A stretch of DNA of 46,586 bases from Kofleriaceae bacterium (GTDB taxonomy: Bacteria; Myxococcota_A; Polyangia; Haliangiales; Haliangiaceae). Where the stretch lies: the NCBI GenBank assembly GCA_018058095.1, contig JAGPCO010000055.1:1-46586 (forward strand), in the 5' to 3' direction. This document shows positions 6,949 to 43,844 of the stretch, piece after piece. Below the pieces are notes generated by a model. That model saw only the letters and a program-made list of their open reading frames with translations. It searched no databases and had not been told where the DNA came from. A program made the translations under genes and the position numbers. Each line of letters starts with the position of its first letter. The stretch's first letter is position 1.

Positions 6949-6957
6949 CAGGCCGGC

Positions 6958-6985: not shown

Positions 6986-7127
6986 GGGGCAATTCTCTGA
7001 ATTTGCTCCAGCTCTGGGTGTCCGGGTGGTCCTGGCCGGCAAGTCGGCGAATGGAAAAGGGGACTTCGGCGAGCCCCGATCCGGGCCGATCGGCAGGGCC
7101 ACGCCGGCCGACCGTGAGCGGCGTTTC

Positions 7128-7161
7128 TTGCGCTGGCGGCCAGATGGCCGATAACGGAATC
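7128..7161 (+). promoter_or_regulatory. Leaderless-type promoter for the gene at 7162
   Basis: TTGCGC at 7128-7133, 16 bases, GATAAC at 7150-7155, then 6 bases to ATG 7162. This favours the ATG at 7162 over the in-frame ATG at 7144, which would overlap the spacer of this promoter. Confidence 0.55.
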
Positions 7162-7713: not shown

Positions 7714-7714
7714 C

Positions 7715-8359: not shown

Positions 8360-8392
8360 CGCCGGACCGACCCGCGCGCTACGCTCCCGACG
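8356..8392 (+). promoter_or_regulatory. Leaderless-type promoter of the TSP3-type lipoprotein gene
   Basis: GTGACG at 8356-8361 (four of six bases as in TTGACA), 18 bases, TACGCT at 8380-8385, then 7 bases to GTG 8393. No ribosome binding site is present before the GTG. Confidence 0.5.
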
Positions 8393-9229
8393 GTGTGGCG
8401 CGTCGGCCCTTGCCTGGTCCTGGTCCTGACCCTGGCCGGTTGCGGTCGGTTCGGCTTCGCTACCGGCACGGGTGACGCGCCGGTGGGGGCCGCCGCCGAC
8501 GGGAACTCGCCGGCCGGCGACGCCCCGGCCATGGTGTGCGTCGCCCCGGTCGGCAACGACGACGACGAGGACGGCATCGACGACGCCTGCGATGGGTGCC
8601 CGCACCTGGCCGACGGGGCTCAGGTCGACGGCGATGGGGACGGCGTCGGCGACGTGTGCGACCGCTCACCGGGCGACGACCGCGTCGTCCGCTTCGACCC
8701 GTTCCTGAGCGCCGCGCTGGAGGAGCGCTGGAGCGTCGTGCTCGGCGCCTGGACCGTCGCCGCCAGCCAGGCGCGGCTGGACGGCGCCGGCGGCGGGCTC
8801 GGCCGCCTGGGCCACGCCCACGCCGGTGGGCCGATCGTGGCGGTCGCGCGGGGCGCGGTGGTGGCGACCGGCGCCGGCGCCCCGGTCCAGCTGTCGATCC
8901 AGCTCGGCCAGTCCGGCAACGAGGAGGCCGACTACTGTGAGGTCTACGGCGATCCCAACCAGCCCCGGCTCAAGGCCAGCGTGTACGACGGGGTCGGCTT
9001 CATCGAGCGCGCGGCCATCTTGCTGCCAGCCCTGACGCCGGGCCCATTCGCCCTCGCCCTGATCGACGACGGCGCGGCCGGCTGGCGCTGCCAGTTCGTT
9101 CGCCCGAGCGGCGCGAGCGAGATCTCGTCGGCCACCCCGGTCGCGGCCGGACGTGACCTCCTGTACCTGCAGTTCGCCGAGGTCACCGTCGAGCTGGCCA
9201 GCTACGGCGAGGTCGTGCCGGCGCCGTGA
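8393..9229 (+). CDS. Lipoprotein with thrombospondin type 3-like calcium repeats
   Basis: The product is 278 residues. The signal peptide ends in a lipobox LAGC with Cys17. After a Gly/Ala-rich stretch comes an Asp-rich calcium-binding region, DDDEDGIDDACDGCPHLADG then QVDGDGDGVGDVCD (about residues 60-95). This matches thrombospondin type 3 repeats, typical of myxobacterial surface proteins. The remaining roughly 180 residues look like a beta-sandwich of the LamG/concanavalin-like kind (FDPFLSAALEERWSVVLGAW...), but this is inferred from pattern only. It is probably an outer-membrane lipoprotein; its partner is unknown. Confidence 0.85.
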   Translation: MWRVGPCLVLVLTLAGCGRFGFATGTGDAPVGAAADGNSPAGDAPAMVCVAPVGNDDDEDGIDDACDGCPHLADGAQVDGDGDGVGDVCDRSPGDDRVVRFDPFLSAALEERWSVVLGAWTVAASQARLDGAGGGLGRLGHAHAGGPIVAVARGAVVATGAGAPVQLSIQLGQSGNEEADYCEVYGDPNQPRLKASVYDGVGFIERAAILLPALTPGPFALALIDDGAAGWRCQFVRPSGASEISSATPVAAGRDLLYLQFAEVTVELASYGEVVPAP

Positions 9230-9409
9230 CCTCGCCGGCCGGCGGGGCGTGTCGGATCCGTCGACGGTGTGAACCGGCGGTCGCAGCGGGCAGGCCACCA
9301 CGATCCTGCCGGATGACGCGCGACTGTGGCGCCGGGGCAACAGCTGGACCATGGCCGGGAACTTGCTCCCAGCCGGGAGGACGCGTTCAGCTGGACGCAA
9401 GGAGCTTCC

Positions 9410-10030
9410 ATGTCGACCACCTCCCCGCGCCTCTCCGTCTCGCTCGCCGGCCTGATCGCCGTCCTCGCCACCGCCGCCGCCGCTGCTGCCCAGCCGGGGC
9501 CTGGTCCTCGTCCCGGGCCGCCGCCACGCCATGGCTGGGAGCTGGCGGCTGGCGTGAACGGCGGCGAGATCAACTGCGACAGCCAGGACGACCTGTGTGA
9601 CGGCGTGACCGAGGCCGGCGGCCTGTACCTGGCCGCCACCTACATGTTCTCGCCCCGGCTCGGCGTCACCGCCGAGACCTGGCCGATGGTGCACAGCGAG
9701 GACCTGTACTCCTTCACCCACGTGGTCTCCACGATCGGCGTGACCTGGCGGCCGGTCCCGGTGCTCGCCGTCCGCGGCGGCCTCGGCAGCGCCTACGCCC
9801 GGCTGCAGGCCGACGTGGTCGGCCTCGACCGCCGGACCGAGAACGCGCCGGCGGTCCTGCTGGGCGCGGCCCTCGACGTGGTGCGCGCGCCGCGCTGGGC
9901 CCTCGACGTCCACGCCCGGGTCGGGGCGGGCTTCTACGGCAACGACGCCGACGGCGACGGCGAGCCCGACGTGGTCGCGCGCAACGTCGGCCTCGGCCTC
10001 GCCTTCACGTACCTGCTGTCGGCGCGGTGA
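9410..10030 (+). CDS. Small outer-membrane beta-barrel-like protein
   Basis: The product is 206 residues with a Sec signal peptide (SLAGLIAVLATAAAAAAQ). ATG 9410 has AAGGAG at 9399-9404, so this gene uses a normal ribosome binding site, unlike many neighbours. The mature part alternates hydrophobic and polar residues in strands: GGLYLAATYMFSPRLGVTAE, VVSTIGVTWRPVPVLAVRGG, and a final strand VGLGLAFTYLLSAR. This is the pattern of eight-stranded OmpA/OprF-type barrels. The C-terminus does not end in Phe. An acidic loop, NDADGDGEPD, could bind calcium. No partner genes were identified. Confidence 0.75.
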   Translation: MSTTSPRLSVSLAGLIAVLATAAAAAAQPGPGPRPGPPPRHGWELAAGVNGGEINCDSQDDLCDGVTEAGGLYLAATYMFSPRLGVTAETWPMVHSEDLYSFTHVVSTIGVTWRPVPVLAVRGGLGSAYARLQADVVGLDRRTENAPAVLLGAALDVVRAPRWALDVHARVGAGFYGNDADGDGEPDVVARNVGLGLAFTYLLSAR

Positions 10031-10051
10031 GCCGGCGCGCTCGGCCCCGGG

Positions 10052-10918
<867 letters not shown>

Positions 10919-10953
10919 GGCGGCACGGTAGCGGGCCCGGCCCGACGAGGCAA
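10919..10953 (-). promoter_or_regulatory. Leaderless-type promoter of panC
   Basis: On the minus strand, TTGCCT at 10953-10948, 17 bases, TACCGT at 10930-10925, then 6 bases to GTG 10918. No ribosome binding site precedes the start. Confidence 0.62.
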
Positions 10954-10972
10954 CCGGCGCCGGCGCCCGCGC

Positions 10973-12040
10973 TCACGGCGTCGGGAAGAGCTGGCCGCCG
11001 CCGACGCTGCCGAGCACGCACATGACGGTCTCGGTGCAGTCGGGGAAGGCGGCGAACAGGCGCATGAGCTGCTGGCTGTCGAGGCTCATCGCGTCGCACG
11101 GGAACTGCTGGGCCGCGGTCAGGCAGCGGTCGGCCCGGGCTGGCTGGTAACAGGTGCCGTTGCCGCCTGGCCCGAGCGCGCGCAGGGCCTGGGCCAGCTG
11201 GTCGAGCACCACGCCGTTGCTGCCGCCGCACTGCTGGTCGCGGTCGCGCAGGGCGCCGAGGAAGCGCTCGAGGAACCGATCCGCGGTCGGGGTGCCGCCC
11301 GGGCTCGGCGCCGGCACCGGATCGTCGGGCGGAACCGGGGGCATGGGCGGGGCGAGATCGTCGGGGTCGGTCGGGGCCGGCACGCCGGGCGGGCTGCTCC
11401 ACGGGTCCGCTGGGTCGGGTGGCGTGGCGCCTTGCCCGCCGCCCTGGTCGGGCGCGACCTGGCCTGGCATCGCGCCCTGGCCGCCCGGGCCGGTCGGCTG
11501 CGGGTTGGTCGGCATGCGGTCGTCGTCACCACCGCTGGCCGGGGTCAGGGCGCGGGCCGGCTTGGCCACGCTGGGCTTGGGCGGCACCAGCAGCATCACG
11601 ACCGACACCGCGATGGCGATGGCCGCGAGCACGACGACGATCATCGGCCAGCGCCGGGCCAGCCACGAGCCGCGCGCCTCGGCGTCGGCGCCGACCGGGT
11701 ACCCGGGCGAGATGGTGGTGGCAGGGCTCGGGCTCATGCCGGCCAGCAGCGACGGTGCGGCATGGCCGTTGCTGCCGCTGGCGCCGGGCAGGTAGGCCAC
11801 CACGGCCTGGGCAGGCGGTGGCGTCGGCGCCAGCGCCGCTGGGCCGGTGGCAATGTGTGGCAGGGCGGCCGGGGCGAGGGCACCACCGCTGGTGGTCGGG
11901 CCCCCACCACGCCAGGCGACGAGGTCGGCCCGGCAGTGCTTGCAGCGGCCGGCGATCGGGTGGATGAGCCCGCCGCAGGCCGGGCAGGGCACCCGGGCGT
12001 CGGCAGGAGACGGAACACCAGCGCGAGCGAGAGCTGCCAA
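10973..12040 (-). CDS. Zinc-ribbon membrane protein with Pro-rich linker
   Basis: The product is about 355 residues. A zinc ribbon lies near the N-terminus, with Cys19 and Cys22 (CPAC) and Cys33 and Cys36 (CKHC). Next are a low-complexity Pro/Ala/Gly stretch, one membrane helix at about residues 128-150 (WPMIVVVLAAIAIAVSVVML), a Pro/Gly/Asp-rich linker, and a small folded C-terminal domain with several Cys (QQCGGSNGVV, CYQPARADRC, FPCDAMS, FPDCTETVMC). The ribbon should be cytoplasmic and the Cys-rich end periplasmic. The start is uncertain: TTG at 12040 was taken because AGGA precedes it and the ribbon follows closely. No function is assigned. Confidence 0.7.
   Translation of the reverse strand: MAALARAGVPSPADARVPCPACGGLIHPIAGRCKHCRADLVAWRGGGPTTSGGALAPAALPHIATGPAALAPTPPPAQAVVAYLPGASGSNGHAAPSLLAGMSPSPATTISPGYPVGADAEARGSWLARRWPMIVVVLAAIAIAVSVVMLLVPPKPSVAKPARALTPASGGDDDRMPTNPQPTGPGGQGAMPGQVAPDQGGGQGATPPDPADPWSSPPGVPAPTDPDDLAPPMPPVPPDDPVPAPSPGGTPTADRFLERFLGALRDRDQQCGGSNGVVLDQLAQALRALGPGGNGTCYQPARADRCLTAAQQFPCDAMSLDSQQLMRLFAAFPDCTETVMCVLGSVGGGQLFPTP

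Positions 12041-29558: not shown

Positions 29559-29562
<4 letters not shown>
28231..29562 (-). CDS. Lipoprotein of unknown function
   Basis: The product is 443 residues. Signal peptide RALRIAASAGLVLAAC gives a lipobox LAAC with Cys19, then KKR. The mature protein has Cys pairs (ACPVCEVDFG, QCGLPCPG) and stretches such as ITITDKQTMVGVAPWIV and PRGLPLTRVREVVAALPEGA that suggest a folded mixed alpha/beta domain. The C-terminal part carries an ExbD-like/TolR-like feel (ITDKQ..., pattern only), too weak for assignment. The start overlaps the stop of the sigma54 activator gene (ATGA at 29559-29562), so regulator and lipoprotein are made together. Confidence 0.78.
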
Positions 29563-30922
<1,360 letters not shown>

Positions 30923-30926
<4 letters not shown>

Positions 30927-32239
30927 GGATGCCTCGATGACGGTACCACCGCCAGCGCGCACGAAGCAGCGGGCGACGCGCCGGTTTTCCGACGCCGCCG
31001 GAGGCCGACGGCGACCAGCAGCATCAGCGCGGCCGGCCCGGGTCCGGGGCCAGGTCCAGCCCGGCAGCAGCCCGCCCCGGGCGGCGTGGTCACGCCAGCA
31101 TCGCCGGCCGGGTTGCCGGCGGCGTCGGCCAAAGGTGGCGCCGCGTCGAACGGATCACCCACCGGGTACAGCACGACCGAGTTGAACTGCAGGCCGTTGA
31201 TCTGATCGAGCGTCTTGCACTGCTGGCCGGTGCGATAGCCGGCCTTGGCCGCCGTGACACACACACGCCGCGCCGGCACGTCCGTGAACTCGAACCCGCC
31301 GGTGGCGTTGCTGGTGGTGGTGCGCACGCCGTCGAGGGTGACCGCGGCATCGGCGATGGGGGAGCACGGCATCGTCGTTCGCTCGCACACGTTGCCGCGC
31401 AGGGTCACGAGGGTGGTCGGCGCCAGCCGGACCGCGAGGTGGTTGGCGACCGCGCGCTCGACCCCGTCGGACGGCCGGCTGATGAGCGCGCCGTCCCACA
31501 CCATGGCCGCGCTGGCGCCGGTGCCCAGGCCGAGCGCGTTGGCGGCGCCCTGGCTCTGCAGGAAGCCGCCCAGCTCGGCCGCGGTCAGGCCGGCCTGCCC
31601 GGCCTGCCACCCATCGACCACGGCCACCAGCAGGCGCAGCCGATCGGCCGACAGGCCGATCGCGGTCCGAGGCGCACGCACGCAGGCCAGGGTCTCGGCG
31701 TCGGCGCACGCCGGCGGCTCGAGGGCGTTGCCGCGCACCAGCATCGGCTTGCCGGAGACGGCGGCCAGGATGTCGTCGGTCCAGGCCTGGTGGTCGACCG
31801 GCTCCTCCGGCGCGTACAGCCGGGCGATCACGCCGGACGCCCCGGGATGGCTGAGGGACAGGACGCCCGAGGTCGGGCTGTCGGCGGTGCCCGACCAGGT
31901 CACCATGTCGCCGCGGGCCAGCCCGCGCGGGCGGTTGCCGACCACGGCGAAGAAGTCGCCGTTGACGACCACCGGCGCCGCCACCAGCTGGCTCAGCTCG
32001 GTCGGGGTGTGGCCGGCCAGGTCCTGCGGGGTAGCCAGCACGGTGATCTCGGTCGCCGACAGGTCGACCAGGACCAGGTGGATGGTGGTGGGTGCGTCGT
32101 GGCGCCACTCCTGGTAGCGCACCGCCCCGCCGCCCAGCTGGCGCTCGCTGACCAGCGTCGGCGCGGCCGCGGCCGGGCCGACCAGCGCCAGCGCCAGTGC
32201 GCAAGCCAGGCCTGCGCTGGTGATCGAGCCAGGCGTCAT
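30923..32239 (-). CDS. Phosphodiester glycosidase-like (NAGPA) secreted protein with MYXO-CTERM tail
   Basis: The product is 438 residues with a signal peptide (LACALALALVGPAAAA). A NAGPA/DUF2233 domain covers about 50-280: VVNGDFFAV, PRTAIGLSADRLRLLVAVVDG (described by its ends), and the final block with SDGVERAVANHLAV. The usual active-site DGGGS reads GTGAS here, so the conserved Asp is missing. A carboxypeptidase-regulatory-like beta domain (about 290-365) follows. The end shows a MYXO-CTERM-type signal: GCCRAG, a hydrophobic helix, and RRRRK, here followed by 15-20 extra residues. MYXO-CTERM tails mark proteins for cell-surface sorting in myxobacteria. It heads the six-gene run; its promoter is at 32240-32251. 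Confidence 0.85.
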
Positions 32240-32390: not shown

Positions 32391-34535
32391 TCACGGGACG
32401 TAGACGGTCTTGCCGGCGCGGACCGTGACTTCCTTGGGCGCGATGTTGCCATCGGTGATGACGTAGATGACCCGCTTGCCCTCGGTGAACGCGGCCTTGC
32501 TGACCATGCCCGCGCCCTTGAGCTGGAGCTTGCTGCCGGCCTTGGCCTCGACGAAGCCGAACTCGAACTTGGCGATGGCCGCGTCGGCGCCGACCTCGAC
32601 GGTCTGGTCCCCGCTGGCGCCATAGCTGCCGTTGAACGACACCTTGTACGTGCCCGGCTTGACCACACAGACGAAGTCCTTCACGTCGCGACCGCGGCAC
32701 TCGGGCACGCCGGCCACCGTGCCCTTGCCGCTGACGTTGGCGCGCACGACCAGGGCGGTGCCCTCGACCAGGGTGCGGGTGAAGGTCTTGCGGCGGGCGC
32801 CGCGCTCGGGCTCGGCCTCGAAGTTGACCGGGATGTGCTTCTCGAGGTTGAGGGTGAACGAGGTCGCCTTGCCAGCCTCGATCAGGATCTCCTCGGTCGG
32901 GGTCACCACCCCGGGCAGCAGCTCGCCGTTCTTCCACACCTTGGCCCCGGGCGGCGTCGACTGGATGACCACGGTCGCGTAGTCGGGCGACACCGCGAGG
33001 GTCGACTGGAACTGCGCCGTCTTACCCGGCGCCGGCACCTCGAACGGGAGCAGGCCGTCGCCGTACCCGGTCTTGCGGATGACCGCGGCCTGGGCCGACT
33101 TGGGCGGCAGCGAGGTCAGGATGATCGGGGTCCGGCCCACGATCTTGCCGCCGATCTCGACCTCGGCGTCGCTCGGGTCGCTGATGATGTTGACCGAGGC
33201 GGTCTTGGCCGCCAGCTCCAGCCGCACGGTGGCCCGTTGCTTGGTCGGCTCGACCACGGCCCGGGCCGGCTCGTAGCCGTCGAGAGTGGCCATGACCGGG
33301 TAGGCCTCGCCCACGGTCAGGTTGTCGATGACCAGGCCGCCGGTGCCGGTGACCCCGCGCGGCTTGCCGCCGACCTCGACGGTGGCGCCGGCCGGCTCGG
33401 TGGTGATGAGCACCGACGACTTGGCGGCGCCGAACAGGCGGGGCCAGGCCAGGAGGGCGATCAGCGCGAACATGGCGGCGATGGCCGCGGACAGGGCGAC
33501 CAGGACCGCGGTCGGGGTGCGGCTCGGCACCTCGCGCCGCTCGACCGGGAAGTTGGCGCCGGCCGGCAGCTTGCGCGACGGCCCGGCGGCCAGGCGACCA
33601 CCCGCGTCGATGCGCTCGTGGAAGAAGCCGAACGCCTGCAGCTGGATCTTCGGCGTCTCCAGGTCGAACGTACACACCGCCTCGGTCGCCACGCCGGGCA
33701 GGACGTTGAAGTAGACCCGGCTGGCCGAGTTGGCGATGAGGTACAGCCCGAGCCCGGCGCCGCCGGTCTTGCGATCGATCTGCTGCTCGGAGTGCAGGCA
33801 CTTGTAGAGGTAGCGCAGCACGGTGTCGCGCTCGAGCGTGCCGAACGCGTCGCGCACCGACACCGAGAAGCGGCGGCCGTCGCAGGCGTACTGGATGACG
33901 ACCTTCTGCTCGACCCGGAGGGAGATCCGGGTCTTGGTCGGGATGTCGGAGAAGATCGGGCGGCCCTGCTCGTCGACCGGGGCGTCGTACAAGGCGTTCA
34001 TGAGCATCTCGTCGACGGCCTGCTCGATGGCCTCGCGGTACTTGCGGCGGACGCCCATCAGCTCGGCGTATTCGGACAGCTGGGCGATGGCGAGCGACTT
34101 CTCCTGGTAGTCGCCGACCAGGGCCGAGTGGATCTTGGTGCCCCACGGCACGACCTTCTCGAGGCCGAAGATGTCGCCGGCCAGGACCCGGGTCGCCATC
34201 GCCGCCAGCTCGTTCACGTCGAGCTGCTCGGCGACGATGATGCTGGCGATGCGATCCGAGCCCTGCATGATCTCGACCGTCTGGTCGAGCGCGCTGCGGG
34301 GCAGCACGGCGATGACCTTGGCGTCGCCGGTCAGGCGCGGCAGGATCTCGGCCAGCGCCCCGGCCAGGGCATCGACCAGGTGCACCACCACCAGGCTGAC
34401 CGCGACCTCGCCGCGGCCAAGCGCCTCGAGGCTCTGGTGCGCCTCGGCGGCATGCCCCGACGCCTTTAGCGCCGTCGCCAATTGTTTTGCGATCGCCTTG
34501 TCCGGCGACAGCGCGATAATGCGTCGCGACAGCAT
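32391..34535 (-). CDS. Receiver-like / histidine-kinase ATPase-like / PEGA membrane protein
   Basis: The product is 714 residues. Residues 1-125 resemble a response-regulator receiver fold (RRIIALSPDKAIAKQLATAL, LVVVHLVDALAGALAEILP, KVIAVLPRSALDQ), but a clear phospho-acceptor Asp at the usual place is not seen. Residues about 130-300 form a GHKL ATPase of the RsbW kind: YREAIEQAVDEMLMNALYDA (N box) and GGAGLGLYLI (G box), with no His-phosphotransfer helix. One membrane helix lies at about 343-368. Three PEGA-type beta domains follow outside (about 373-590; SSVLITTEPAGATVEVGGK, IISDPSDAEVEIGGK, VIQSTPPGAKVWKNGE), plus a beta-rich end. This layout suggests signal transfer across the membrane. 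AGGGG precedes the ATG. Confidence 0.85.
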   Translation of the reverse strand: MLSRRIIALSPDKAIAKQLATALKASGHAAEAHQSLEALGRGEVAVSLVVVHLVDALAGALAEILPRLTGDAKVIAVLPRSALDQTVEIMQGSDRIASIIVAEQLDVNELAAMATRVLAGDIFGLEKVVPWGTKIHSALVGDYQEKSLAIAQLSEYAELMGVRRKYREAIEQAVDEMLMNALYDAPVDEQGRPIFSDIPTKTRISLRVEQKVVIQYACDGRRFSVSVRDAFGTLERDTVLRYLYKCLHSEQQIDRKTGGAGLGLYLIANSASRVYFNVLPGVATEAVCTFDLETPKIQLQAFGFFHERIDAGGRLAAGPSRKLPAGANFPVERREVPSRTPTAVLVALSAAIAAMFALIALLAWPRLFGAAKSSVLITTEPAGATVEVGGKPRGVTGTGGLVIDNLTVGEAYPVMATLDGYEPARAVVEPTKQRATVRLELAAKTASVNIISDPSDAEVEIGGKIVGRTPIILTSLPPKSAQAAVIRKTGYGDGLLPFEVPAPGKTAQFQSTLAVSPDYATVVIQSTPPGAKVWKNGELLPGVVTPTEEILIEAGKATSFTLNLEKHIPVNFEAEPERGARRKTFTRTLVEGTALVVRANVSGKGTVAGVPECRGRDVKDFVCVVKPGTYKVSFNGSYGASGDQTVEVGADAAIAKFEFGFVEAKAGSKLQLKGAGMVSKAAFTEGKRVIYVITDGNIAPKEVTVRAGKTVYVP

Positions 34536-34618: not shown

Positions 34619-35167
34619 TCAGATGACGACCCCGTCCCACCGGCCGACCCAGCGGGTCGGGGTGAAGGCCGGGATGGGGTGCGGCGGCAGGACCGGGGTG
34701 TGATCGCGCCAGAACGAGCGAAATGGCAGCTTCTGGCCGGTCCTATAGAAGTGCAGCAGGTAGGCAACGTCGCAGGCGGCGAAGTCGGACACCCATCCGT
34801 CGAGGTCGTACACGTCGCACTCGTGGAGCAGGGCGATGCTGTAGGCGCAGGCGTCCCGCTCGTAGGCAGCGACCGCGACCAGGTCGGCCTCGGTCCACGC
34901 CGTCGGCCGGGCGGTGCCGATGGCGCGGGCGGCGTCCGACAGGTTCCACTGCACCGTGTGCCCGAACAGGTGGAGCAGGATGAACAGGGCGTCGTCGACC
35001 GCGAGATCGAAGTCGACGTGGATCTCGGCGCCGTCGAGGTCCCCGGTGAACGGGTTGGGCACGTCACGGACCCGGACCGGGATGCCCCAGCGGCTCTCGA
35101 CGTGGCGCTCGACCAGGCTGAAGACCTGGCGCAGCCGCTCGGCTTCGGGCGTGGCCGGCGCGGTCAC
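34619..35167 (-). CDS. Zincin-like protein with degenerate HExxH
   Basis: The product is 182 residues, cytoplasmic. The core reads ALFILLHLFGHTVQW, then about 30 residues on, YERDACAYSIALLHE. This has the layout of HExxH metallopeptidases of the ImmA/IrrE type (HExxH helix followed by an ExxA helix), but the catalytic Glu is Leu in HLFGH. Two His and the later Glu could still bind a metal. It may be a non-catalytic binding protein, or a family whose chemistry differs. Its start overlaps the stop of the 94-residue gene (ATGA at 35164-35167), so the two are co-expressed. Confidence 0.75.
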   Translation of the reverse strand: MTAPATPEAERLRQVFSLVERHVESRWGIPVRVRDVPNPFTGDLDGAEIHVDFDLAVDDALFILLHLFGHTVQWNLSDAARAIGTARPTAWTEADLVAVAAYERDACAYSIALLHECDVYDLDGWVSDFAACDVAYLLHFYRTGQKLPFRSFWRDHTPVLPPHPIPAFTPTRWVGRWDGVVI

Positions 35168-35448
35168 GGGCGCGGGGCGCGGACCTTGGCCTGGGCCAGG
35201 TCGTGCAGGACCTGCATGACCGAGTAGGCGGTGACCTCGGCCAGCAGGCGGGTCACGGCCGCGTGCTGGGCGTCGTCGAGGAGGGGCTCGACCTTGCGCA
35301 TCGCGGCCACCACGTTCTGCTCCTGCTTGGCCAGCTCGCCGGGGTCGATCACGCCGTCGGCGATCGAGGCCGAGAAGTGCTCGAGCTGTGCGACGTGGGC
35401 GTCGAGGTCGGGGGTGGAGTCGTCGTCGATCCAGCTGGCGCGGGGCAT
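35164..35448 (-). CDS. Small acidic helical protein of unknown function
   Basis: The product is 94 residues, mostly helical: MPRASWIDDDSTPDLDAHV, then HFSASIADGVIDPGELAKQEQ, MRKVEPLLDDAQHAAVTRLL and YSVMQVLHDLAQ. The IADGVIDPGELAKQE segment resembles the helix-loop-helix seen in TerB/EF-hand-like small proteins, but this is only a resemblance. It lies between the AAA+ ATPase gene (34 bases upstream) and the zincin-like gene (4-base overlap). TACGGT 6 bases before its ATG suggests its own leaderless promoter. Confidence 0.75.
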   Translation of the reverse strand: MPRASWIDDDSTPDLDAHVAQLEHFSASIADGVIDPGELAKQEQNVVAAMRKVEPLLDDAQHAAVTRLLAEVTAYSVMQVLHDLAQAKVRAPRP

Positions 35449-35460
35449 GCCCCGACCGTA
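35449..35460 (-). promoter_or_regulatory. Leaderless-type promoter of the 94-residue protein gene
   Basis: On the minus strand, TACGGT at 35460-35455 is followed by 6 bases and ATG 35448. It lies in the 34-base gap after the AAA+ gene. No -35 was recognised. Confidence 0.45.
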
Positions 35461-35482
35461 CCAGCGGCGCGGGCCGGGATCA

Positions 35483-37270
35483 TCAGCGGCCCTCCAGGAT
35501 CTGCTTGATGGCGGTCAGGCGCTCCTGCAGCTTCTCGCGCCCGCCCAGCTTGTCCATCTTCTCGCGCTTGGCCGGGGGCAGGAACTCGAGGTCGGTGCAC
35601 TCGATGATCGCCGCCAGCTCCTGCGCCTCGCGCTCGAGCGTCTGCGTCGACGGCATGAAGCCGGCCAGCGCCCCGGCCAGCGCCTCCTTGGTGATGGCCT
35701 CGCTGCCGGCCAGGAGCGAGGTGCGGTAGGCCCGGCCGATGATGCCCTCGATGTCGGCGCCCGACAGGTTGCCCAGGTGCGGGAACTCGGCCGGCAGGTC
35801 GGCCTCGTCGAGCTTGGTCCCGGCCTTCCGGGCCAGGATGACGAACATCTTCTTCAGCTCGTCGACCTCGTGCGGGTAGAACAACGGGACGTGGACCTCG
35901 GCCCGGCCCTGCCGCTTGAGGTCGATCGGCAGCTGGTCGGGCCGCGCCGTCAGCAGCATCCACACGATCTTGCCGCGGTAGGCGGTGTCGCCCATCTGCG
36001 CGGCGATCATGCCGAACACCCGGCTCGAAACGCCGGAGTCGCCGCCCTGGTCGCGGTCGCCCAGCATGGCGTCGGCCTCGTCGACGATGACCACCACCGG
36101 TCCCATCGATCGCAGCACGCCGAGCACGCGCTCGAGGTTGCCCTCGGTCTCACCGACGTACTTGGAGCGGAAGTTCTTGAGCACCACGGCCGGGATGCCG
36201 ATCGACCCGGCCACGCAGGTGGCCAGGAACGACTTGCCGGTGCCGACCGGGCCGCAGAACAGGTAGCCCATCGGCACGGTGTCGTACTTGCCGCGGCGGA
36301 TCAGCTCGGCGTCGTCGAGCAGCCGCTTCTTGGCCGCGTCGTGGCCGACGACCGTGTCGAGGCCCCACTTGGGCTCGATGAACTCGAGCATGCCCTGGGC
36401 CGAGCGCTCGATCAGGCGCTTCTTGAGCTCCTTGAAGTACTTGCTGTCGAGGCGGCGCCCACCCTCGACCGCCGAGCGGATGACCACGTCGAGGTCGATG
36501 AGCGAGATGCCGGCGGTGAGGGCGCCGAGCTCGGCCAGGCCGTAGTCGCTGAACGAGGTGACCTCGCGGCCCTTGGCGGCGAAGGCCAGGAAGGCGGTGC
36601 GCTCGCTCGCCGTCGGCATCGCCACCTCGAGGCAGGCGACGTGGGGGTTGGCGGCCATGCGCTCCGACACGTCGGACAGCTTGGGCTCGATCAGGACGAA
36701 GCACAGGTTGAGCCGCTTGACGTACGGGCTCGACGCCCAGTTGAGCAGCGTGACGAGGTGGGTCTGGTCGGCCAGCGACAGCCGCTCGCCGCGCGGGGCG
36801 ACGTAGGCGGCGTGGTCGATGATGATCGCGCAGCGCAGCCGCTTGTCGGGGTCGGCCATCACGTTCTTCTGCACCAGCAGATCGATGGCGGCCAGGGCCT
36901 TGGTCGGCTCGCGCGGCAGCTGGCGCAGGTCGCCGATCCAGGAGCTGGCGGCCACCACCATCTCCTGCAGGCGCTTGCCGTTGCTGCCGGCCAGGCAACG
37001 CAGGCCGCGCGCGAGATCGTAGTGGATGACGAGGTCCCACCGCCCGAACAGCTGCTCGGCCAGGAACTCGGCCAGGCCGGTCCACTTGTCACCGGCGGCG
37101 TCGCCCCGGACCATGTCGTAGGTGTTGCCGTGCAGCACGAACATCGAGGTCGTGCCTGAGAAGTACAGCTCGCCGAGCTTGCCGGCCCAGTCCGGGTAGT
37201 ACGCGGGCAAGGCGGCGGTGCGGCTGACTCCCTCGGAGCCAGCCAGGGTCTTGTCGTCGGCGGCGCTCAT
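35483..37270 (-). CDS. AAA+ ATPase with degenerate N-terminal module (Ycf46-like layout)
   Basis: The product is 595 residues. The C-terminal AAA domain (about 300-510) is complete: Walker A CGPVGTGKS, VLKNFRSKYVGETEGNLERV, Walker B VVVIVDEAD, sensor region WMLLTARPDQL, and arginine-finger region KRQGRAEVHV. The N-terminal half (about 20-290) has ATPase-like spacing, with FVLHGNTYDMV where a P-loop would be and LRCAIIIDHAAYV like a Walker B, so it appears to be a dead ATPase module. This two-part layout is known from Ycf46-like proteins. ATG 37270 was chosen because TACGAT lies 7 bases before it and covers the earlier ATG at 37279. The two small genes downstream are likely partners. Confidence 0.9.
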   Translation of the reverse strand: MSAADDKTLAGSEGVSRTAALPAYYPDWAGKLGELYFSGTTSMFVLHGNTYDMVRGDAAGDKWTGLAEFLAEQLFGRWDLVIHYDLARGLRCLAGSNGKRLQEMVVAASSWIGDLRQLPREPTKALAAIDLLVQKNVMADPDKRLRCAIIIDHAAYVAPRGERLSLADQTHLVTLLNWASSPYVKRLNLCFVLIEPKLSDVSERMAANPHVACLEVAMPTASERTAFLAFAAKGREVTSFSDYGLAELGALTAGISLIDLDVVIRSAVEGGRRLDSKYFKELKKRLIERSAQGMLEFIEPKWGLDTVVGHDAAKKRLLDDAELIRRGKYDTVPMGYLFCGPVGTGKSFLATCVAGSIGIPAVVLKNFRSKYVGETEGNLERVLGVLRSMGPVVVIVDEADAMLGDRDQGGDSGVSSRVFGMIAAQMGDTAYRGKIVWMLLTARPDQLPIDLKRQGRAEVHVPLFYPHEVDELKKMFVILARKAGTKLDEADLPAEFPHLGNLSGADIEGIIGRAYRTSLLAGSEAITKEALAGALAGFMPSTQTLEREAQELAAIIECTDLEFLPPAKREKMDKLGGREKLQERLTAIKQILEGR

Positions 37271-37283
37271 CGCCGGCATCGTA
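37271..37283 (-). promoter_or_regulatory. Leaderless-type promoter of the AAA+ gene
   Basis: On the minus strand, TACGAT at 37283-37278 is followed by 7 bases and ATG 37270. The hexamer overlaps the upstream in-frame ATG at 37279, which argues against that start. No -35 was recognised. Confidence 0.5.
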
Positions 37284-38228: not shown

Positions 38229-41200
38229 TCAGGGCACGACGTTCTTCATCGGCGGCGCGGTCACCACCACGGCCTGCAGCGGGGTGGAGTCGACGTCGAT
38301 CCGGCTGCATCGCACCTCGAGCTCATCAGGTGCGTCCAGCGTGGCGACGTAGGCGCCGTCGCCGAAGTCCCCGGCGAAGGGGATCACGCAGGCGATGTTC
38401 GGGCCGGGGGGCACGCCAGCGAGGCGGCTGTGGATGTCGCCCGCCTGGTAGTGCGGCCGGCCGGCGCTGGTCGTGGTGGCCGGGGTGACCGCGATGGCCA
38501 TGCCGACGTGAAACCGGGGCCAGCGCAGCAGGCGCGTGTTGACCTCGGCCACCGTGGTCGCCGCCAGCAGGCCATCGTCGGTGGCGAGCACGACCTGCGC
38601 GCTCGGGATGCGGCCGCGTTCGGCCCGGACGATGACATCGAGCACGGTCCCTGAGAGGTCCAGCCCCAGGCCGTCCGAGGTGGCCTGGCCTGGTCGTAGC
38701 AGGACGTCGACGCTGTCGATGCGGTGATCCCCCAGGGGCGAGGTCGAGAAGGTCCACGCCCGGGCCGGGCCGGCCGGCAGGCCGGAGAACGACCACTGCG
38801 TCCCCTGCTGGTAGCCGGTGGCTGAGGCCAGGAACCCCTCGAACATGAGGTAGACGTTCATGAGGTGCACCCGGCGTCCAGCGGCCAGCAACGGGTCGGG
38901 CTCGGTGCGGCCGCGATCGGCCGTGGGGGCTACCCGCACCTGGACCGTCGCCTGGGCGTTCGGCTCGATCCGGAGGGTGAGCGGACGATCTCCGGCGGGT
39001 GCTGGTCGGCTGCGTTGTCCGGGGGCCATCGCCAGCACCCCGTGGTCGCGTGTGGTGGCGAGGGTGAACGCGCCATCGGGACCGGAGCGGGTGGTGGCGA
39101 GGCCGCGCTGCAGGGCGGGGATGAGCGCTCCGTGCAGCACGAACGAGATCGGCGGGGCAGCGGCCACGACCTCGATGCCCGCGACCGGGCGGCCGCTGGT
39201 GTCGACGACCCGGCCCCGCACGGTGACTGCCGCCTCCGGCTTCGCTGGCGCCAGCGGCCGGGAGGGCAACGCCTGCCCGGCGCGGTCGATCATCGCGACG
39301 GCCTCAGCGGGGTCGCCGTCGTGCAGGAGCATCCCGAGCATCAAGCGCCGCTGCTCGGTCTCCGGCTGCCCGGCGCCGAAGGTCTGCTCGGCCCAGGCCA
39401 GCGACTCGCGCAGCAAGGACACGGTGAGGGTGAGGTCGCCAGGCTCACCACGCAGGGCGTGAAACTCCGCCAGGGTGTCGGTGGCCACCACCGCTCGTCG
39501 GCTGTCGCCGGCGGCGACGAGCGTGGCTCGTGCGGCCCGGGTCTGGTCGATGGCCTGGTCGAGCCGCCCAGCCGCGGCGTCGATACCCGCGACGATGAGG
39601 TCGACCGAGGCCCCGAGGATCGGGTCATCGCCGGCACGCTGGATGGCGGCGCGCGCCTGCTCGGTCAAGCGCTGGATCGCGGCCAGGTCGGACGAGCTGT
39701 TGCGCGTGCACTCGAGCGCGCCGACCCGGGCCATCGCCCGCATGCCATCGGCGCCGGCGGCCTCGGCAGCGGTCGCCGCCTCTTCGAACAACCCGACCGC
39801 GGCTCCGCACTCGCCAGTCAGCTGGGTCACGGTCGCCTTGGTCGTCAGGGCCAGCGGCAGGGCAGGCGGGTAGGCGTCGGCCAGCGCGCGCGCGCGGGTG
39901 AGCACCTCGTCGGCCAGGGCGTGGGCCCGGGCCTTGCCGGCCTTGGCCTCGCTACCCTCGGGGTCTGGGTGCCGGCGGGCGACTCGGGCCAGGAGCCGGG
40001 CCCTGGTGCCGTCCGACCCGACCGACGCCAGCGCGGCCCGGGTCGCTGGATCGGTCGGCAGGGCTGGCATGGCCGCACGTCGGCCGGTCCGGCACAGCTC
40101 GGGCGAAGGCACGACATCAGTCAGGTCGACGCCGACCAGGACTGACGGGGGGAGGTCGCGCACCACGGTGACCGCGCCTACGACCTCGTCGCGCAGCCCG
40201 GCCAGACAAGCCAGCCTTCCGTGGTAGGTCGGCGCGGTCGGAGCTGCACAGGCCGCGAGACGCTCCTGGCGCCACGCGCGGCTGAACCCGTCGAGGTGGG
40301 ACGCGACCTTGGCCCACCGAGGGTCACCGGTCAGCGCGCCCGGCAGCGCGGCGGCGACGGCCGGCGACCAGGCGGCGTCGATCTCGGCGTCGGTCAGGCC
40401 ACACGCGACCGGCGCGACGGCGTGAGCCGGGTCCTCGCCGCCAGTCGCGTAGAGGAGCGCCCCGCCAGCCAGCGCGCCGACGCCGGCGGCCACGACCGCG
40501 CCTCGGACCAGCCGACGCGGACCGTCGACGGAGCGATCGAGGGCGGTGAGCAGCGCGGCCAGGTCCGGCCAGCGCGCGGCCGCGGCGGGCGCGAGCGCGC
40601 GCACCAGGACCGGACGGAGCGCGCGCGGCAACGCGCTGGCATCGGGCGGGCCGCGTTCGACCGCGGCCCGCAGCTCGGCCGCGGTGCGTCCAGAGAACGG
40701 GCGCTGCCCGGTCAGGCCCTCCCACAGCGCGACGGCGAAGGCGAACTGATCGGCGGCCGGGCCGGCCTGCTGGCCCGCGTGTTGTTCGGGCGCCATGTAC
40801 GCCGGCGTGCCCATCAGCGCCCCGGTCGCCGTCAAGGTGCTCGAAAGGTCCGCGCCCGATCGACTGGCGCTGGTGGATCGTGCCGAGGCCTCGGCCGGGG
40901 CGGCCAGGGTCGCCTCGAGCGCGGTCGCGAGCGCGGCCGCGGGCGCGGGCGCGGCCGGCAGCGTCGCCGCCAGCACGTCGGCCTCGTAGGCGCGGGCCAG
41001 GCCGAAGTCGGTGACGACGACCCGGCCGTCGTGCCCGAGCAGGACGTTGGCCGGCTTGAAGTCGCGGTGGACCAGGCCGCGAGCGTGGGCGGCGGCCAGC
41101 CCGGCGCCGGCGGCGCGGAACCGGCGCAGCACCTCGGCCGCGGGCCGGCGTTCGCCGCGCAGCCAGTCGGCCAGGCTGCCGCCGTCGAGCAGCTCCATGG

Positions 41201-41549
41201 CCACGAAGTCGACGCCGCCGGCGGTGCCGACCTCGTGCACGGTGATGACGTTGCGGTGGCTGAGCTTGGCCATGGCCCGGGCCTCGCGCAGCAGGCGCAG
41301 CCGGGCCTCGCCCCCGGCCTCGCTGCGCAGGACCTTGATGGCGACGCGCCGGTCGAGGTCGGGGTCATGCGCGGCGTAGACCAGGCCCATCCCGCCGGCG
41401 CCGAGCTCGCGCTCGATGCGGTAGCGGCCGAGCTGGTCGCCCGGCGCCAGCGCACGCGCGTGGCCGGGCGACGGCGCGGACGAACCAGGCGCGGCCGCGG
41501 TGGCCTCGGGCTCGCTCGCCGAGGTGTCGCCGTGGGCATCGACCGGCAT
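38229..41549 (-). CDS. Large Ser/Thr kinase with extracytoplasmic helical and carboxypeptidase-regulatory-like domains
   Basis: The product is 1106 residues. The kinase domain (about 42-335) has GAGGMGLVYAAHD, VAIKVL, HRDFKPANVLL (His161, Asp163), DFGLA (Asp181) and APEQ. Between DFG and APE lies an Ala-rich insert of about 40 extra residues. One membrane helix follows at about 345-365 (VVAAGVGALAGGALLYA). The outer part contains a helical TPR-like region (about 420-720), then a carboxypeptidase-regulatory-like beta domain (VTVRGRVVDTSGRPVAGIEV, about 770) and more beta sandwich to the end. Kinases with TPR outer parts are common in myxobacteria; the beta-rich end is less usual. TACGCT lies 9 bases before ATG 41549. 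The gene is divergent from the 41616 lipoprotein. Confidence 0.92.
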   Translation of the reverse strand: MPVDAHGDTSASEPEATAAAPGSSAPSPGHARALAPGDQLGRYRIERELGAGGMGLVYAAHDPDLDRRVAIKVLRSEAGGEARLRLLREARAMAKLSHRNVITVHEVGTAGGVDFVAMELLDGGSLADWLRGERRPAAEVLRRFRAAGAGLAAAHARGLVHRDFKPANVLLGHDGRVVVTDFGLARAYEADVLAATLPAAPAPAAALATALEATLAAPAEASARSTSASRSGADLSSTLTATGALMGTPAYMAPEQHAGQQAGPAADQFAFAVALWEGLTGQRPFSGRTAAELRAAVERGPPDASALPRALRPVLVRALAPAAAARWPDLAALLTALDRSVDGPRRLVRGAVVAAGVGALAGGALLYATGGEDPAHAVAPVACGLTDAEIDAAWSPAVAAALPGALTGDPRWAKVASHLDGFSRAWRQERLAACAAPTAPTYHGRLACLAGLRDEVVGAVTVVRDLPPSVLVGVDLTDVVPSPELCRTGRRAAMPALPTDPATRAALASVGSDGTRARLLARVARRHPDPEGSEAKAGKARAHALADEVLTRARALADAYPPALPLALTTKATVTQLTGECGAAVGLFEEAATAAEAAGADGMRAMARVGALECTRNSSSDLAAIQRLTEQARAAIQRAGDDPILGASVDLIVAGIDAAAGRLDQAIDQTRAARATLVAAGDSRRAVVATDTLAEFHALRGEPGDLTLTVSLLRESLAWAEQTFGAGQPETEQRRLMLGMLLHDGDPAEAVAMIDRAGQALPSRPLAPAKPEAAVTVRGRVVDTSGRPVAGIEVVAAAPPISFVLHGALIPALQRGLATTRSGPDGAFTLATTRDHGVLAMAPGQRSRPAPAGDRPLTLRIEPNAQATVQVRVAPTADRGRTEPDPLLAAGRRVHLMNVYLMFEGFLASATGYQQGTQWSFSGLPAGPARAWTFSTSPLGDHRIDSVDVLLRPGQATSDGLGLDLSGTVLDVIVRAERGRIPSAQVVLATDDGLLAATTVAEVNTRLLRWPRFHVGMAIAVTPATTTSAGRPHYQAGDIHSRLAGVPPGPNIACVIPFAGDFGDGAYVATLDAPDELEVRCSRIDVDSTPLQAVVVTAPPMKNVVP

Positions 41550-41564
41550 GGCGCACGCAGCGTA
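41550..41564 (-). promoter_or_regulatory. Promoter with very short leader for the large kinase gene
   Basis: On the minus strand, TACGCT at 41564-41559 lies 9 bases before ATG 41549, giving a predicted leader of about two bases. No ribosome binding site is visible. Confidence 0.42.
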
Positions 41565-41603
41565 CCTCAGGTCGCGCCCCGGCCGGGCCGCGCGCGCTCG
41601 CGC

Positions 41604-41615
41604 TATGATGGGCCG
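41604..41615 (+). promoter_or_regulatory. Leaderless-type promoter of the Cys-rich lipoprotein gene
   Basis: TATGAT at 41604-41609 matches five of six bases of the -10 consensus and is followed by 6 bases and ATG 41616. No -35 was recognised. Together with the kinase promoter it forms a divergent pair. Confidence 0.58.
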
Positions 41616-43844
41616 ATGCGGCAGCGCGGGCGCGTGGTGATGGTGCTGGCGCTCGTGGCGGCCACGCCGGCCTGCCTCGAGTCCAGCCTGGTGCCGTGCG
41701 CCGACGGCACGTTCTGCCCGTCCGGCACGGTCTGTGGCGAGGGCACCTGCACGCCGGCCGAGGCGCTGGCCGGCTGCGCCGGCAGCCCCGACGGCACCGC
41801 CTGCACGATCGCCGGAGGCCCGGGCGCCTGCATCCTGGGCGTGTGCACCGCCCAGGAGTGTGGAGACGGCGCGGTGACCGGCACCGAGCAGTGTGATGGG
41901 GCCGCGGCTCGGACCTGCGAGGCGCTCGGGCATCACGGAGGGACGCTCACCTGCAGCGCCGCCTGCCAGTTCGACGTCAGCGCCTGCCGTCGCTGCGGCG
42001 ACGGCGTGGTCGAGCCGGGGCTCGAGACCTGCGACGGCGCTCCGGCGACCGACTGCGTCGAGCGTGGCTACGACCTGGGCCCGACCAGCTGCACCAGCCT
42101 GTGTAACGCCGACCTCCGCCGGTGCGAGTTCACGGCCTGGCAACGGGCCTTCACCGCGTCGCGCACCCTCGTCGCCGGCGCCAGCGCGGGGCCGGACGAC
42201 GTCCTCATCGCCGGCGCCAACGGCTACGTGGCCCGGTTCGACGGCGCTGGCTGGATCGATGGCACGGTGCCGACCGAGGAACGCCTGGGCGAGGTCGAGG
42301 CGTCGACCACCAGCTACTGGGTCAGCAGCGGAGCGCGCCTGTATCGCCTGGCCCGATCGGCCAGCGTCGCCGATCCGGCGGCCTGGCAGGAGCACGTGCC
42401 GCCGTCGACGCCGGTCCGGGCGATGCACGTGCGGCACGACGCCGACGTCTGGCTCGGTGGTCCGGGGCGAGCGCTCCACGCCTACGACGGCGCCCAGTGG
42501 ACGGCGGTCACGCTCCCCGGCGCGGTGGCCGGCGGGGTGAACTCGATCTGGCGCGATGACGCCCGGTCCGTGATCGGCATGGGCGACGGCAAGGTGCTGG
42601 TCTCGTTCGGCGCGGCCGCCTTCACCACGGCGGCCACGTGCGCGCCGGCCGCGGTCGTCGAGGTGTGGGCCGACCCCGACGGGGCGATCGGCGCGGCGTG
42701 TGACGATGATCGGTTGATCCGGATCGCGGGTGCGGGGCCAGCGGAGATCACGACGTTCCCTGGCTCGGCATGGATCGGCGCGGAGGCGCACGCCGGCTCG
42801 GTGGTCGTCGTCGCGACGGGAGGGCGTCCGCTGTGGCGCGACGGCGGCTACTGGAGCTGGATCGATCAGCCGCTCGCGGGCGCCGACGCGGCCGTGATCA
42901 CCGAGACCGCCGTGTTCATCCTGGTCGGGACCACGGTGTACCAGCGCCCGGCGCGCTGGTGGACGTCGACGACGACGGTCGATCCATCGGCCAGCGTGAG
43001 CGCGGCCTGGTTCCGGTCCGAGGCGGGCGCGGTGGTGCCCTGGATCGCCAGCGGCGTGACCCTGGCCCGGGCCGGGGAGGTCGTGCCCACCACGCTGTCC
43101 GGCTGCGGCAACACGCTGGCCCGGATCGGTGGCCTGGCCGGGCACGCGCCGGGGCCGCTGTTCGCGATCGCCGCGATGACGGGCGGTGGCTCGGCCCTGC
43201 TCCAGATCGACGCCCCGGCGGCGTCGCCCCTCACCCTGCGTTGTGTGGTCGAGGTGGCGCAGGACCTGAGCACGGTCGCGGTCAGCCCGGACGGCGCGGC
43301 CATCGCCGTCGGCGACAATGGGCGCGTGGTGATCGCCCAGCCGGCCGGGCCGGCCCAGACGTACCTGGGGAGCCTCGACGGCCTGCCAGGCAACGCCCTG
43401 GTCGGCGCCTGGATCGGCAGCGGCGACGACGCCTGGGTCGTCGGCACCGCCGGCGCGATCGCCCACTGGGACGGCGCCAGCTGGACCACGACGCCGCCGT
43501 TCGTGACGATCTCCCTGCAGGGGGTCCGGGCCTGGCCCGGCGGGGAGGTCCTGGTGGTCGGCGCCGCCGGCACGGTGTGGCAACGGCGCGGAGGGCAGTG
43601 GGAAGCGCTCGACGGCCCGCCGGGCGCGCGCACGCTGCGGGCGATCGACGGCGCCCAGCCCGACGACGTGTGGATCGGCGGCCTCGATGGTTCGCTGGCG
43701 CACTTCGATGGCGTGAGCTGGTCGCGCGCCACCTTGCCCCCGGTCGCCGGCCAGGACATCGACACGGTGCAGGTGGTGCCGGGTGGACTGGCGCTGCGGG
43801 TCGTCAACACCGGCGGGTCCGTGCGTCAGCTGCGCGGCCTCTGA
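41616..43844 (+). CDS. Cys-rich propeller-like surface lipoprotein
   Basis: The product is 742 residues. The signal peptide RGRVVMVLALVAATPAC has an atypical lipobox (TPAC). The first 170 residues are Cys-rich: CADGTFCPSGTVCGEGTC, then DUF4215-like units CGDGAVTGTEQCDG and CGDGVVEPGLETCDG. The rest is a repeat-rich beta-propeller, with blades of the kind DDVLIAGANGYVARFDGAGW, DVWLGGPGRALHAYDGAQW, DDAWVVGTAGAIAHWDGASW, and DDVWIGGLDGSLAHFDGVSW. The repeated phrase W-x-x-G...L-x-H-x-D-G-x-x-W is common in myxobacterial surface proteins. It may bind a surface ligand. Its end overlaps the convergent MocR gene by 19 bases. Confidence 0.87.
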   Translation: MRQRGRVVMVLALVAATPACLESSLVPCADGTFCPSGTVCGEGTCTPAEALAGCAGSPDGTACTIAGGPGACILGVCTAQECGDGAVTGTEQCDGAAARTCEALGHHGGTLTCSAACQFDVSACRRCGDGVVEPGLETCDGAPATDCVERGYDLGPTSCTSLCNADLRRCEFTAWQRAFTASRTLVAGASAGPDDVLIAGANGYVARFDGAGWIDGTVPTEERLGEVEASTTSYWVSSGARLYRLARSASVADPAAWQEHVPPSTPVRAMHVRHDADVWLGGPGRALHAYDGAQWTAVTLPGAVAGGVNSIWRDDARSVIGMGDGKVLVSFGAAAFTTAATCAPAAVVEVWADPDGAIGAACDDDRLIRIAGAGPAEITTFPGSAWIGAEAHAGSVVVVATGGRPLWRDGGYWSWIDQPLAGADAAVITETAVFILVGTTVYQRPARWWTSTTTVDPSASVSAAWFRSEAGAVVPWIASGVTLARAGEVVPTTLSGCGNTLARIGGLAGHAPGPLFAIAAMTGGGSALLQIDAPAASPLTLRCVVEVAQDLSTVAVSPDGAAIAVGDNGRVVIAQPAGPAQTYLGSLDGLPGNALVGAWIGSGDDAWVVGTAGAIAHWDGASWTTTPPFVTISLQGVRAWPGGEVLVVGAAGTVWQRRGGQWEALDGPPGARTLRAIDGAQPDDVWIGGLDGSLAHFDGVSWSRATLPPVAGQDIDTVQVVPGGLALRVVNTGGSVRQLRGL

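What the first reader, a model, noticed from the sequence alone, without database searches (positions are those of the whole stretch)
32391..34535. One protein joining a receiver-like domain, RsbW-type ATPase, membrane helix and three PEGA domains
The cytoplasmic half has a receiver-like fold without an obvious phospho-Asp and a GHKL ATPase without a His-phosphotransfer helix, so it is not a normal histidine kinase. The ATPase resembles anti-sigma kinases (N box with EML-x-N, G box GGAGLGLYLI). The outside half is three PEGA repeats, often found next to protein kinases or at the cell wall. A membrane-spanning RsbW-like switch controlled by PEGA domains would be unusual.
Basis: partly seen in the sequence, partly recalled or inferred. 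Interest (0 to 1): 0.65.

Follow-up and report, generated by a model that had tools for sequence, protein, structure and literature searches.

The report
Membrane-anchored RsbW-type switch with PEGA ectodomain
A gene found in soil and water relatives of the myxobacteria appears to encode a protein kinase switch of the RsbW (anti-sigma) type that spans the cell membrane, with its phosphorylation input domain worn out and an array of PEGA domains outside the cytoplasm, suggesting that bacteria have wired this normally soluble switch straight to the cell envelope.

Summary
ORF 32391-34535(-) is a real 714-aa protein: receiver fold (1-120) without any phosphorylation residue, a SpoIIAB/RsbW-type GHKL ATPase (132-295), one membrane helix (342-367), three PEGA repeats and a further beta region. 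There is no DHp helix and no invariant His, so it is not a histidine kinase. It is a conserved full-length family (34-57% identity) in Kofleriaceae and scattered other Myxococcota; PEGA-bearing members form one clade. Soluble relatives keep the phospho-Asp position (30/32); PEGA-bearing ones have lost it (2/43 keep it). Soluble relatives sit beside STAS-zinc-ribbon genes whose invariant Ser aligns with the SpoIIAA phospho-Ser, and sometimes SpoIIE phosphatases. A few PEGA-bearing members are themselves next to STAS-fused Ser/Thr kinases or SpoIIE phosphatases. Best reading: a transmembrane RsbW-type serine-kinase switch in a STAS partner-switch network, receiver input replaced by an envelope input. 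An anti-sigma output is not supported (no SigB/F/G-type sigma found). The window protein's own STAS partner and output are not identified; the conserved downstream neighbour is an FHA-sigma54 activator. The cytoplasmic half is laid out like Leptospira LvrC (2026); the membrane/PEGA form is a new variant.

The parts
32391..34535 (-). whole gene: pseudo-receiver + RsbW-type GHKL ATPase + TM + PEGA array, 714 aa
34176..34535 (-). residues 1-120, receiver (REC) fold; phospho-Asp position is H52, acid pair S10/P11, Thr position L78, Lys position A102
   Evidence: AF2 model; Z 16.2 to DrrB receiver 3nns, 114 residues, 2.0 A; sequence hits to receivers; column counts
33651..34142 (-). residues 132-295, GHKL/Bergerat ATPase of SpoIIAB/RsbW type
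   Evidence: Z 15.5 to SpoIIAB 1th8_A, 130 residues, 2.2 A; RsbW 6m37_C Z 14.4; PF13581
33978..34013 (-). N box D175-E-M-L-M-N180-A-L-Y-D-A-P186
   Evidence: E176 and N180 invariant in 23 orthologs and in 31 of 31 non-PEGA relatives
33834..33851 (-). G1 box D229-x-F/Y-G232-x-L234 (family hallmark; the first Gly of DxGxG is aromatic)
33741..33779 (-). ATP lid / G2 box I253-D-R-K-T-G-G-A-G-L-G-L-Y265
   Evidence: invariant G259, A260, G261, L262, G263 in orthologs
33435..33512 (-). single transmembrane helix, residues 342-367
   Evidence: Kyte-Doolittle maximum 2.78 (window starting at 344); 6 Lys/Arg against 2 Asp/Glu just before it; helix in the model
33216..33422 (-). PEGA repeat 1, residues 372-440
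33000..33197 (-). PEGA repeat 2, residues 447-512
   Evidence: PF08308 best stretch 447-492
32814..32981 (-). PEGA repeat 3, residues 519-574
32394..32789 (-). C-terminal beta region, residues 583-714, family unknown
   Evidence: conserved G592, G628
30923..32239 (-). conserved downstream neighbour: phosphodiester glycosidase (NAGPA) with MYXO-CTERM sorting signal
29559..30962 (-). conserved downstream neighbour: FHA-domain sigma54 activator; candidate output partner
   Evidence: within 4 kb of 21 of 43 PEGA-bearing members
34619..35167 (-). upstream neighbour, 182 aa, unknown; synteny in close relatives
35164..35448 (-). upstream neighbour, 94 aa, unknown; synteny in close relatives
35483..37279 (-). 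upstream neighbour, AAA ATPase, 598 aa; synteny in close relatives

Best explanation
It is a membrane-anchored serine-kinase switch of the RsbW/SpoIIAB kind. The cytoplasmic GHKL domain binds ATP and, depending on its state, binds and phosphorylates the conserved Ser of a STAS-zinc-ribbon partner; a SpoIIE-type phosphatase reverses this. In soluble relatives the N-terminal receiver still carries the phospho-Asp position and may be the input. In this clade the receiver has lost its chemistry and is probably a fixed dimer or interaction surface, while the input comes through the membrane helix from the PEGA array outside the cytoplasm. Freed or captured STAS partners would then act on Hanks-type kinases (some are STAS-kinase fusions) and perhaps on the FHA-sigma54 activator encoded downstream, rather than on a SigB/F-type sigma. 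Shown: domain folds, motif conservation, loss of the receiver residues, gene linkage, conserved Ser in the partner family. Inferred: kinase activity, membrane orientation, signal direction, the identity of this protein's own STAS partner, and the output.
For: Fold: 132-293 matches SpoIIAB (Z 15.5) and RsbW (Z 14.4); N-box Glu and Asn invariant. Soluble family members in the same genome: of six, one overlaps a STAS gene (C135), one is 16 bp from a double-STAS gene (C112), one lies in a same-strand cluster with STAS-kinase, FIST-STAS and SpoIIE phosphatase genes (C190). STAS within 1 kb of 3 of 6 has P about 5e-7 under uniform placement; without the member that seeded the STAS search it is 2 of 5, about 8e-5. 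In other genomes the triad family member-STAS-SpoIIE is seen (L113, near-contiguous genes; L112) and STAS neighbours reach Oligoflexia/Bdellovibrionales (L115, L118). STAS Ser invariant in 20 of 20 and aligned to the SpoIIAA phospho-Ser. PEGA-bearing members themselves: next to STAS-STAS-kinase in L082 and L091, and in a same-strand cluster with two SpoIIE phosphatases in L048. Receiver Asp kept in 30 of 32 other relatives outside the kinase-linked sister group, absent in 41 of 43 of the PEGA clade, which is one clade once contig-end or broken copies are counted in.
Against: No STAS or SpoIIE gene was found beside the gene in the window, and for most orthologs of the main group none is adjacent (16 of 43 have none of the scored genes within 4 kb, several of them at contig ends). 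The first Gly of the DxGxG box is replaced by Phe/Tyr in nearly the whole family, so nucleotide binding may differ from RsbW. No activity is shown. Signal passage from PEGA through one helix is assumption. Two PEGA-bearing members (L090, L091) have an Asp at the phospho position.
Confidence: 0.66

Rival explanations
1. Membrane-tethered anti-sigma factor: the GHKL domain sequesters a sigma factor at the membrane, as proposed for LvrC and known for RsbW/SpoIIAB, and releases it on an envelope signal.
For: Best whole-half structural match is LvrC 9qih_A (Z 13.6, 261 residues aligned over both domains, but rmsd 20 A, which suggests a different relative placement of the domains; [quoted passage not shown] SpoIIAB-sigmaF complex 1l0o is among the top matches.
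Against: No SigB/F/G-family sigma over cut-off in a 97% complete genome (best 138 against 234 bits); the region-3 sigma factors inspected look RpoD/RpoS-like. No sigma gene was seen linked to the family in the loci annotated.
Confidence: 0.15
2. The switch works on the FHA-sigma54 activator encoded downstream (directly or through a STAS protein), i.e. an envelope-responsive control of sigma54 promoters. This can hold together with the best explanation as its output.
For: FHA-sigma54 activator within 4 kb of 21 of 43 PEGA-bearing members, including distant lineages (L045, L049, L086-L088), sometimes as the next gene; about 57-73% identity to the window's activator in most conserved pairs.
Against: Gene linkage only. 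The FHA domain lacks the usual phosphothreonine-binding Arg in all 22 sequences (Thr or Gln in its place), so it may not read phosphorylation. RsbW-type kinases are known to phosphorylate Ser of STAS partners.
Confidence: 0.3
3. Catalytically dead scaffold: receiver and ATPase are both degenerate and the protein only tethers partners at the membrane.
For: Receiver is clearly degenerate; G1 box departs from DxGxG.
Against: N-box Glu/Asn, G1 Asp and the GAGLG box are invariant over orthologs down to 34% identity; the odd G1 box is shared with soluble members linked to STAS and SpoIIE genes, where kinase function is expected.
Confidence: 0.12
4. Ordinary hybrid histidine kinase with a divergent DHp.
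For: REC plus HATPase plus membrane helix occur in hybrid kinases; PF02518 weak hit.
Against: Only 11 residues between receiver and ATPase, no DHp helix pair, no invariant His.
Confidence: 0.02

Closest known systems
LvrC (lic11110) of Leptospira, Rec-Bergerat response regulator proposed as anti-sigma factor (PMC13269768, PDB 9qih)
   Same: same order receiver then RsbW-type Bergerat domain; top structural match over both domains
   Different: LvrC is described as a Rec domain joined to the Bergerat domain, with a canonical phosphorylatable receiver (D53); ours lacks all receiver catalytic residues and adds a membrane helix and a PEGA array
SpoIIAB / RsbW with SpoIIAA / RsbV and SpoIIE / RsbU
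   Same: GHKL fold, N-box Glu/Asn, linkage of the family to STAS proteins with the phospho-Ser and to SpoIIE phosphatases
   Different: canonical kinases are small and soluble and bind SigB/SigF; here fused to a receiver, membrane-bound, no SigB/F/G-type sigma found, STAS partners carry a zinc ribbon and can be fused to Hanks kinases
SypE-SypA of Vibrio fischeri (PMC10120452)
   Different: SypE is kinase-REC-phosphatase in one chain, with a receiver activated by phosphotransfer; no membrane helix or PEGA in that description
PEGA-domain Ser/Thr kinases of the same bacteria (own genome C193 kinase next to the closest paralog)
   Same: PEGA carried by a signalling protein linked to the same family
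   Different: there PEGA is on a Hanks-type kinase and the RsbW-like protein is a separate soluble neighbour; here PEGA is fused to the RsbW-like protein itself

Membership tests
RsbW/SpoIIAB GHKL serine kinases | GHKL fold matching SpoIIAB/RsbW | tested here: met
   Z 15.5, 130 residues, 2.2 A to 1th8_A; 6m37_C Z 14.4
RsbW/SpoIIAB GHKL serine kinases | N-box Glu and Asn, GxG box conserved | tested here: met
   invariant E176, N180, G261, G263
RsbW/SpoIIAB GHKL serine kinases | canonical DxGxG G1 box | tested here: not met
   D-x-F/Y-G-x-L in nearly all members; this lowers membership in the classical subfamily, not the claim of a similar way of working
RsbW/SpoIIAB GHKL serine kinases | STAS partner with phosphorylatable Ser | tested here: inconclusive
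   linked STAS gene seen for soluble relatives and for PEGA-bearing L082/L091; partner of the window protein itself not identified, seven candidate STAS proteins in the genome
RsbW/SpoIIAB GHKL serine kinases | Ser kinase activity on the STAS protein | not testable with these tools
   needs biochemistry
anti-sigma factors | cognate SigB/F/G-type sigma in the genome | tested here: not met
   TIGR02980: no match over cut-off; assembly 97% complete
anti-sigma factors | physical binding of a sigma factor | not testable with these tools
   needs biochemistry
LvrC-like Rec-Bergerat response regulators | receiver followed by Bergerat domain | tested here: met
LvrC-like Rec-Bergerat response regulators | phosphorylatable receiver (Asp, acid pair, Thr/Ser, Lys) | tested here: not met
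   H52, S10/P11, L78, A102
hybrid histidine kinase | DHp helices with phospho-His before the ATPase | tested here: not met
   11-residue linker, no invariant His
PEGA-domain proteins (PF08308) | PEGA match over gathering score | tested here: met
   50 bits against 20.8

The most novel reading that the evidence does not exclude
A sigma-free transmembrane partner-switch receptor: PEGA domains sense the envelope, the helix sets the state of an RsbW-type kinase with a dead receiver, and the STAS partner it releases is itself part of a Hanks-type Ser/Thr kinase, so that partner switching feeds the large kinase network of Myxococcota instead of a sigma factor.
Probability: 0.3. Interest if true: 0.72.

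Novelty: new variant of a known kind. Interest (0 to 1): 0.53.

Why it matters
Partner switching is best known as a soluble cytoplasmic device that ends in a sigma factor. Here a conserved family couples it to the membrane in a single chain and, by gene linkage, to Ser/Thr kinases; this genome alone holds over 150 kinase-domain matches, and what controls such kinases is largely open. The STAS-zinc-ribbon proteins, the SpoIIE phosphatases and the kinase fusions give concrete partners to test.

Tried and rejected
Single-sequence phmmer against PDB: nothing useful. Profile search of the family against PDB sequences found receivers; LvrC was not among the listed matches. Viral structure library: mostly tail, baseplate and surface proteins matched, uninformative. 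Literature searches for PEGA with anti-sigma, PEGA with Myxococcota and PEGA with histidine-kinase-like ATPase found no paper in the library. The profile with its zinc ribbon matched eukaryotic zinc fingers; trimming to the STAS core gave the anti-anti-sigma match. The Ser/Thr-kinase query was taken in a wrong frame and was replaced by a kinase profile. Hybrid histidine kinase was considered and rejected. No sigma factor gene was seen linked to the family in the neighbours annotated. Neighbour tallies depend on contig ends; 16 of 43 PEGA members show none of the scored genes within 4 kb. The phylum-wide search scored only three candidates a genome, so 7 of 283 is a lower bound.

Full report
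Check of the observation. The ORF at 32391-34535 on the minus strand encodes 714 aa. It has the codon composition of a real gene in this GC-rich genome. Pfam reports PEGA (50 bits, cut-off 20.8) and HATPase_c_2 (25.1 bits, cut-off 27.4). Full-length homologues at 34-57% identity were aligned from 22 other genomes. The records carrying relatives are mostly Kofleriaceae, Myxococcales and Deltaproteobacteria MAGs. In an evenly drawn sample of the phylum only 7 of 283 genomes passed E 1e-60, so the family does not look general in Myxococcota, though that search scored few candidates a genome.

Anatomy. AlphaFold2 with the ortholog alignment gives mean pLDDT 85 for the whole chain and 93 for residues 1-310. 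Residues 2-120 match receivers (DrrB 3nns, Z 16.2, 114 residues, 2.0 A); residues 132-293 match SpoIIAB (1th8_A, Z 15.5, 130 residues, 2.2 A) and RsbW (6m37_C, Z 14.4). The best match spanning both domains is LvrC of Leptospira, 9qih_A (Z 13.6, 261 residues, rmsd 20 A, which suggests that the two domains are placed differently). A helix at 342-367 is strongly hydrophobic with a positive stretch before it, so the N-terminal half is probably cytoplasmic. Three PEGA repeats and a further beta region follow.

Receiver. All positions of the receiver active site are changed: S10/P11 for the acid pair, H52 for the phospho-Asp, L78 for Thr/Ser and A102 for Lys (positions read off the alignment to known receivers). 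Across the PEGA clade the phospho-Asp column is His 34, Ala 4, Glu 2, Asp 2, Cys 1 (43 rows); in 32 other relatives outside the kinase-linked sister group it is Asp in 30; in the kinase-linked sister group it varies (Ala 7, Gly 5, Asp 5, Ser 2, Asn 1). In the tree the PEGA-bearing rows fall in one clade (SH-aLRT 95); its three rows not scored as PEGA are two copies at contig ends and one truncated frame. So the loss of the phospho-Asp goes with the clade that gained the membrane half and with its sister. The tree is a quick one without bootstrap.

ATPase. E176, N180, D229, G232, G261 and G263 are invariant in all 23 orthologs and in the 31 non-PEGA relatives counted. The first Gly of the DxGxG box is Phe or Tyr in nearly all members, a hallmark of this family.

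Relatives and partners. The genome holds six members of the receiver-GHKL family and seven genes with a STAS domain followed by a Cys4 zinc ribbon. Three of the six members lie beside such genes: C135 (overlapping STAS gene), C112 (double STAS, 16 bp away) and C190, where one same-strand cluster holds a SpoIIE phosphatase, a FIST-STAS protein, a kinase-STAS protein and the family member. Under uniform placement 3 of 6 within 1 kb has P about 5e-7; the STAS profile was seeded with the C135 neighbour, and without it 2 of 5 gives about 8e-5. Elsewhere L113 shows the genes family member-STAS-SpoIIE nearly contiguous and L112 the same triad; STAS neighbours also occur in Oligoflexia/Bdellovibrionales contigs L115 and L118. 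The STAS core matches anti-anti-sigma structures (4hyl 5.9e-5; SpoIIAA 1th8_B 0.0023) with the invariant Ser on the SpoIIAA phospho-Ser (that this is the phosphorylated Ser of SpoIIAA is established knowledge).

PEGA-bearing members and these partners. In L082 and L091 the PEGA-bearing protein directly follows a STAS-STAS-kinase gene (for L082). In L048 two SpoIIE phosphatases, a small gene, a second family member with a membrane helix and a weak PEGA match, and the full-length ortholog follow each other on one strand. In L051/L092 a Ser/Thr kinase gene is adjacent. In many Kofleriaceae, and in the window, the linked gene is instead an FHA-sigma54 activator, usually with a phosphodiester glycosidase between, which in the window carries a MYXO-CTERM signal. 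The FHA domain lacks the usual Arg. The closest paralog (L028 group) is next to a Ser/Thr kinase in 18 of 20 rows, in the own genome one with PEGA.

Output. No SigB/F/G-family sigma passes its cut-off, and the region-3 sigma factors inspected are RpoD/RpoS-like. So the classical end point of RsbW is not evident. [quoted passage not shown]

Conclusion. The protein works most likely as a transmembrane RsbW-type serine-kinase switch in a STAS partner-switch network, with a dead receiver and an envelope-facing PEGA array. The fold, motifs, loss of receiver residues and the family's gene linkages are shown; activity, partner of this particular protein, signal and output are inferred. The receiver-GHKL layout is known from LvrC; the PEGA membrane form and the zinc-ribbon STAS / kinase wiring were not found in the papers searched.

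Noticed in passing
L160 (G000:C190) about 786-11206, minus strand: One same-strand cluster holds a SpoIIE phosphatase, a FIST-STAS protein, a Ser/Thr kinase with internal STAS-zinc-ribbon domain, and a soluble receiver-RsbW protein: all parts of a partner switch together.
   Followed up: partly
A3: L029, L030, L032, L082, L091, L097, L106, L110, L112, L113, L115, L118, L139: A STAS domain followed by a Cys4 zinc ribbon, mostly unrecognised by Pfam, with invariant Ser, in Myxococcota and Oligoflexia/Bdellovibrionales; sometimes fused to a Ser/Thr kinase, FIST or PDZ domain.
   Followed up: partly
G000:C162 (L159:4273-5114): A canonical small RsbW-STAS gene pair in the same genome, although no SigB/F/G-type sigma is found.
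   Followed up: no
window 29559-30962: FHA domain of the sigma54 activator has GT or GQ where FHA domains usually have GR, in all 22 orthologs.
   Followed up: partly
window 34619-37279: Syntenic set AAA ATPase, 94-aa and 182-aa proteins upstream of the finding in close relatives; the two small ones have no convincing family match.
   Followed up: no
window 38229-43703: 1824-aa frame with only a partial protein-kinase match and low third-position GC for this genome; possibly a frameshift or a wrong frame in part.
   Followed up: no
L075 (JABDMN010000384.1): A full-length relative on a 3.6-kb contig labelled Acidimicrobiia; it groups inside the Myxococcota proteins, so probably a binning error.
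   Followed up: no
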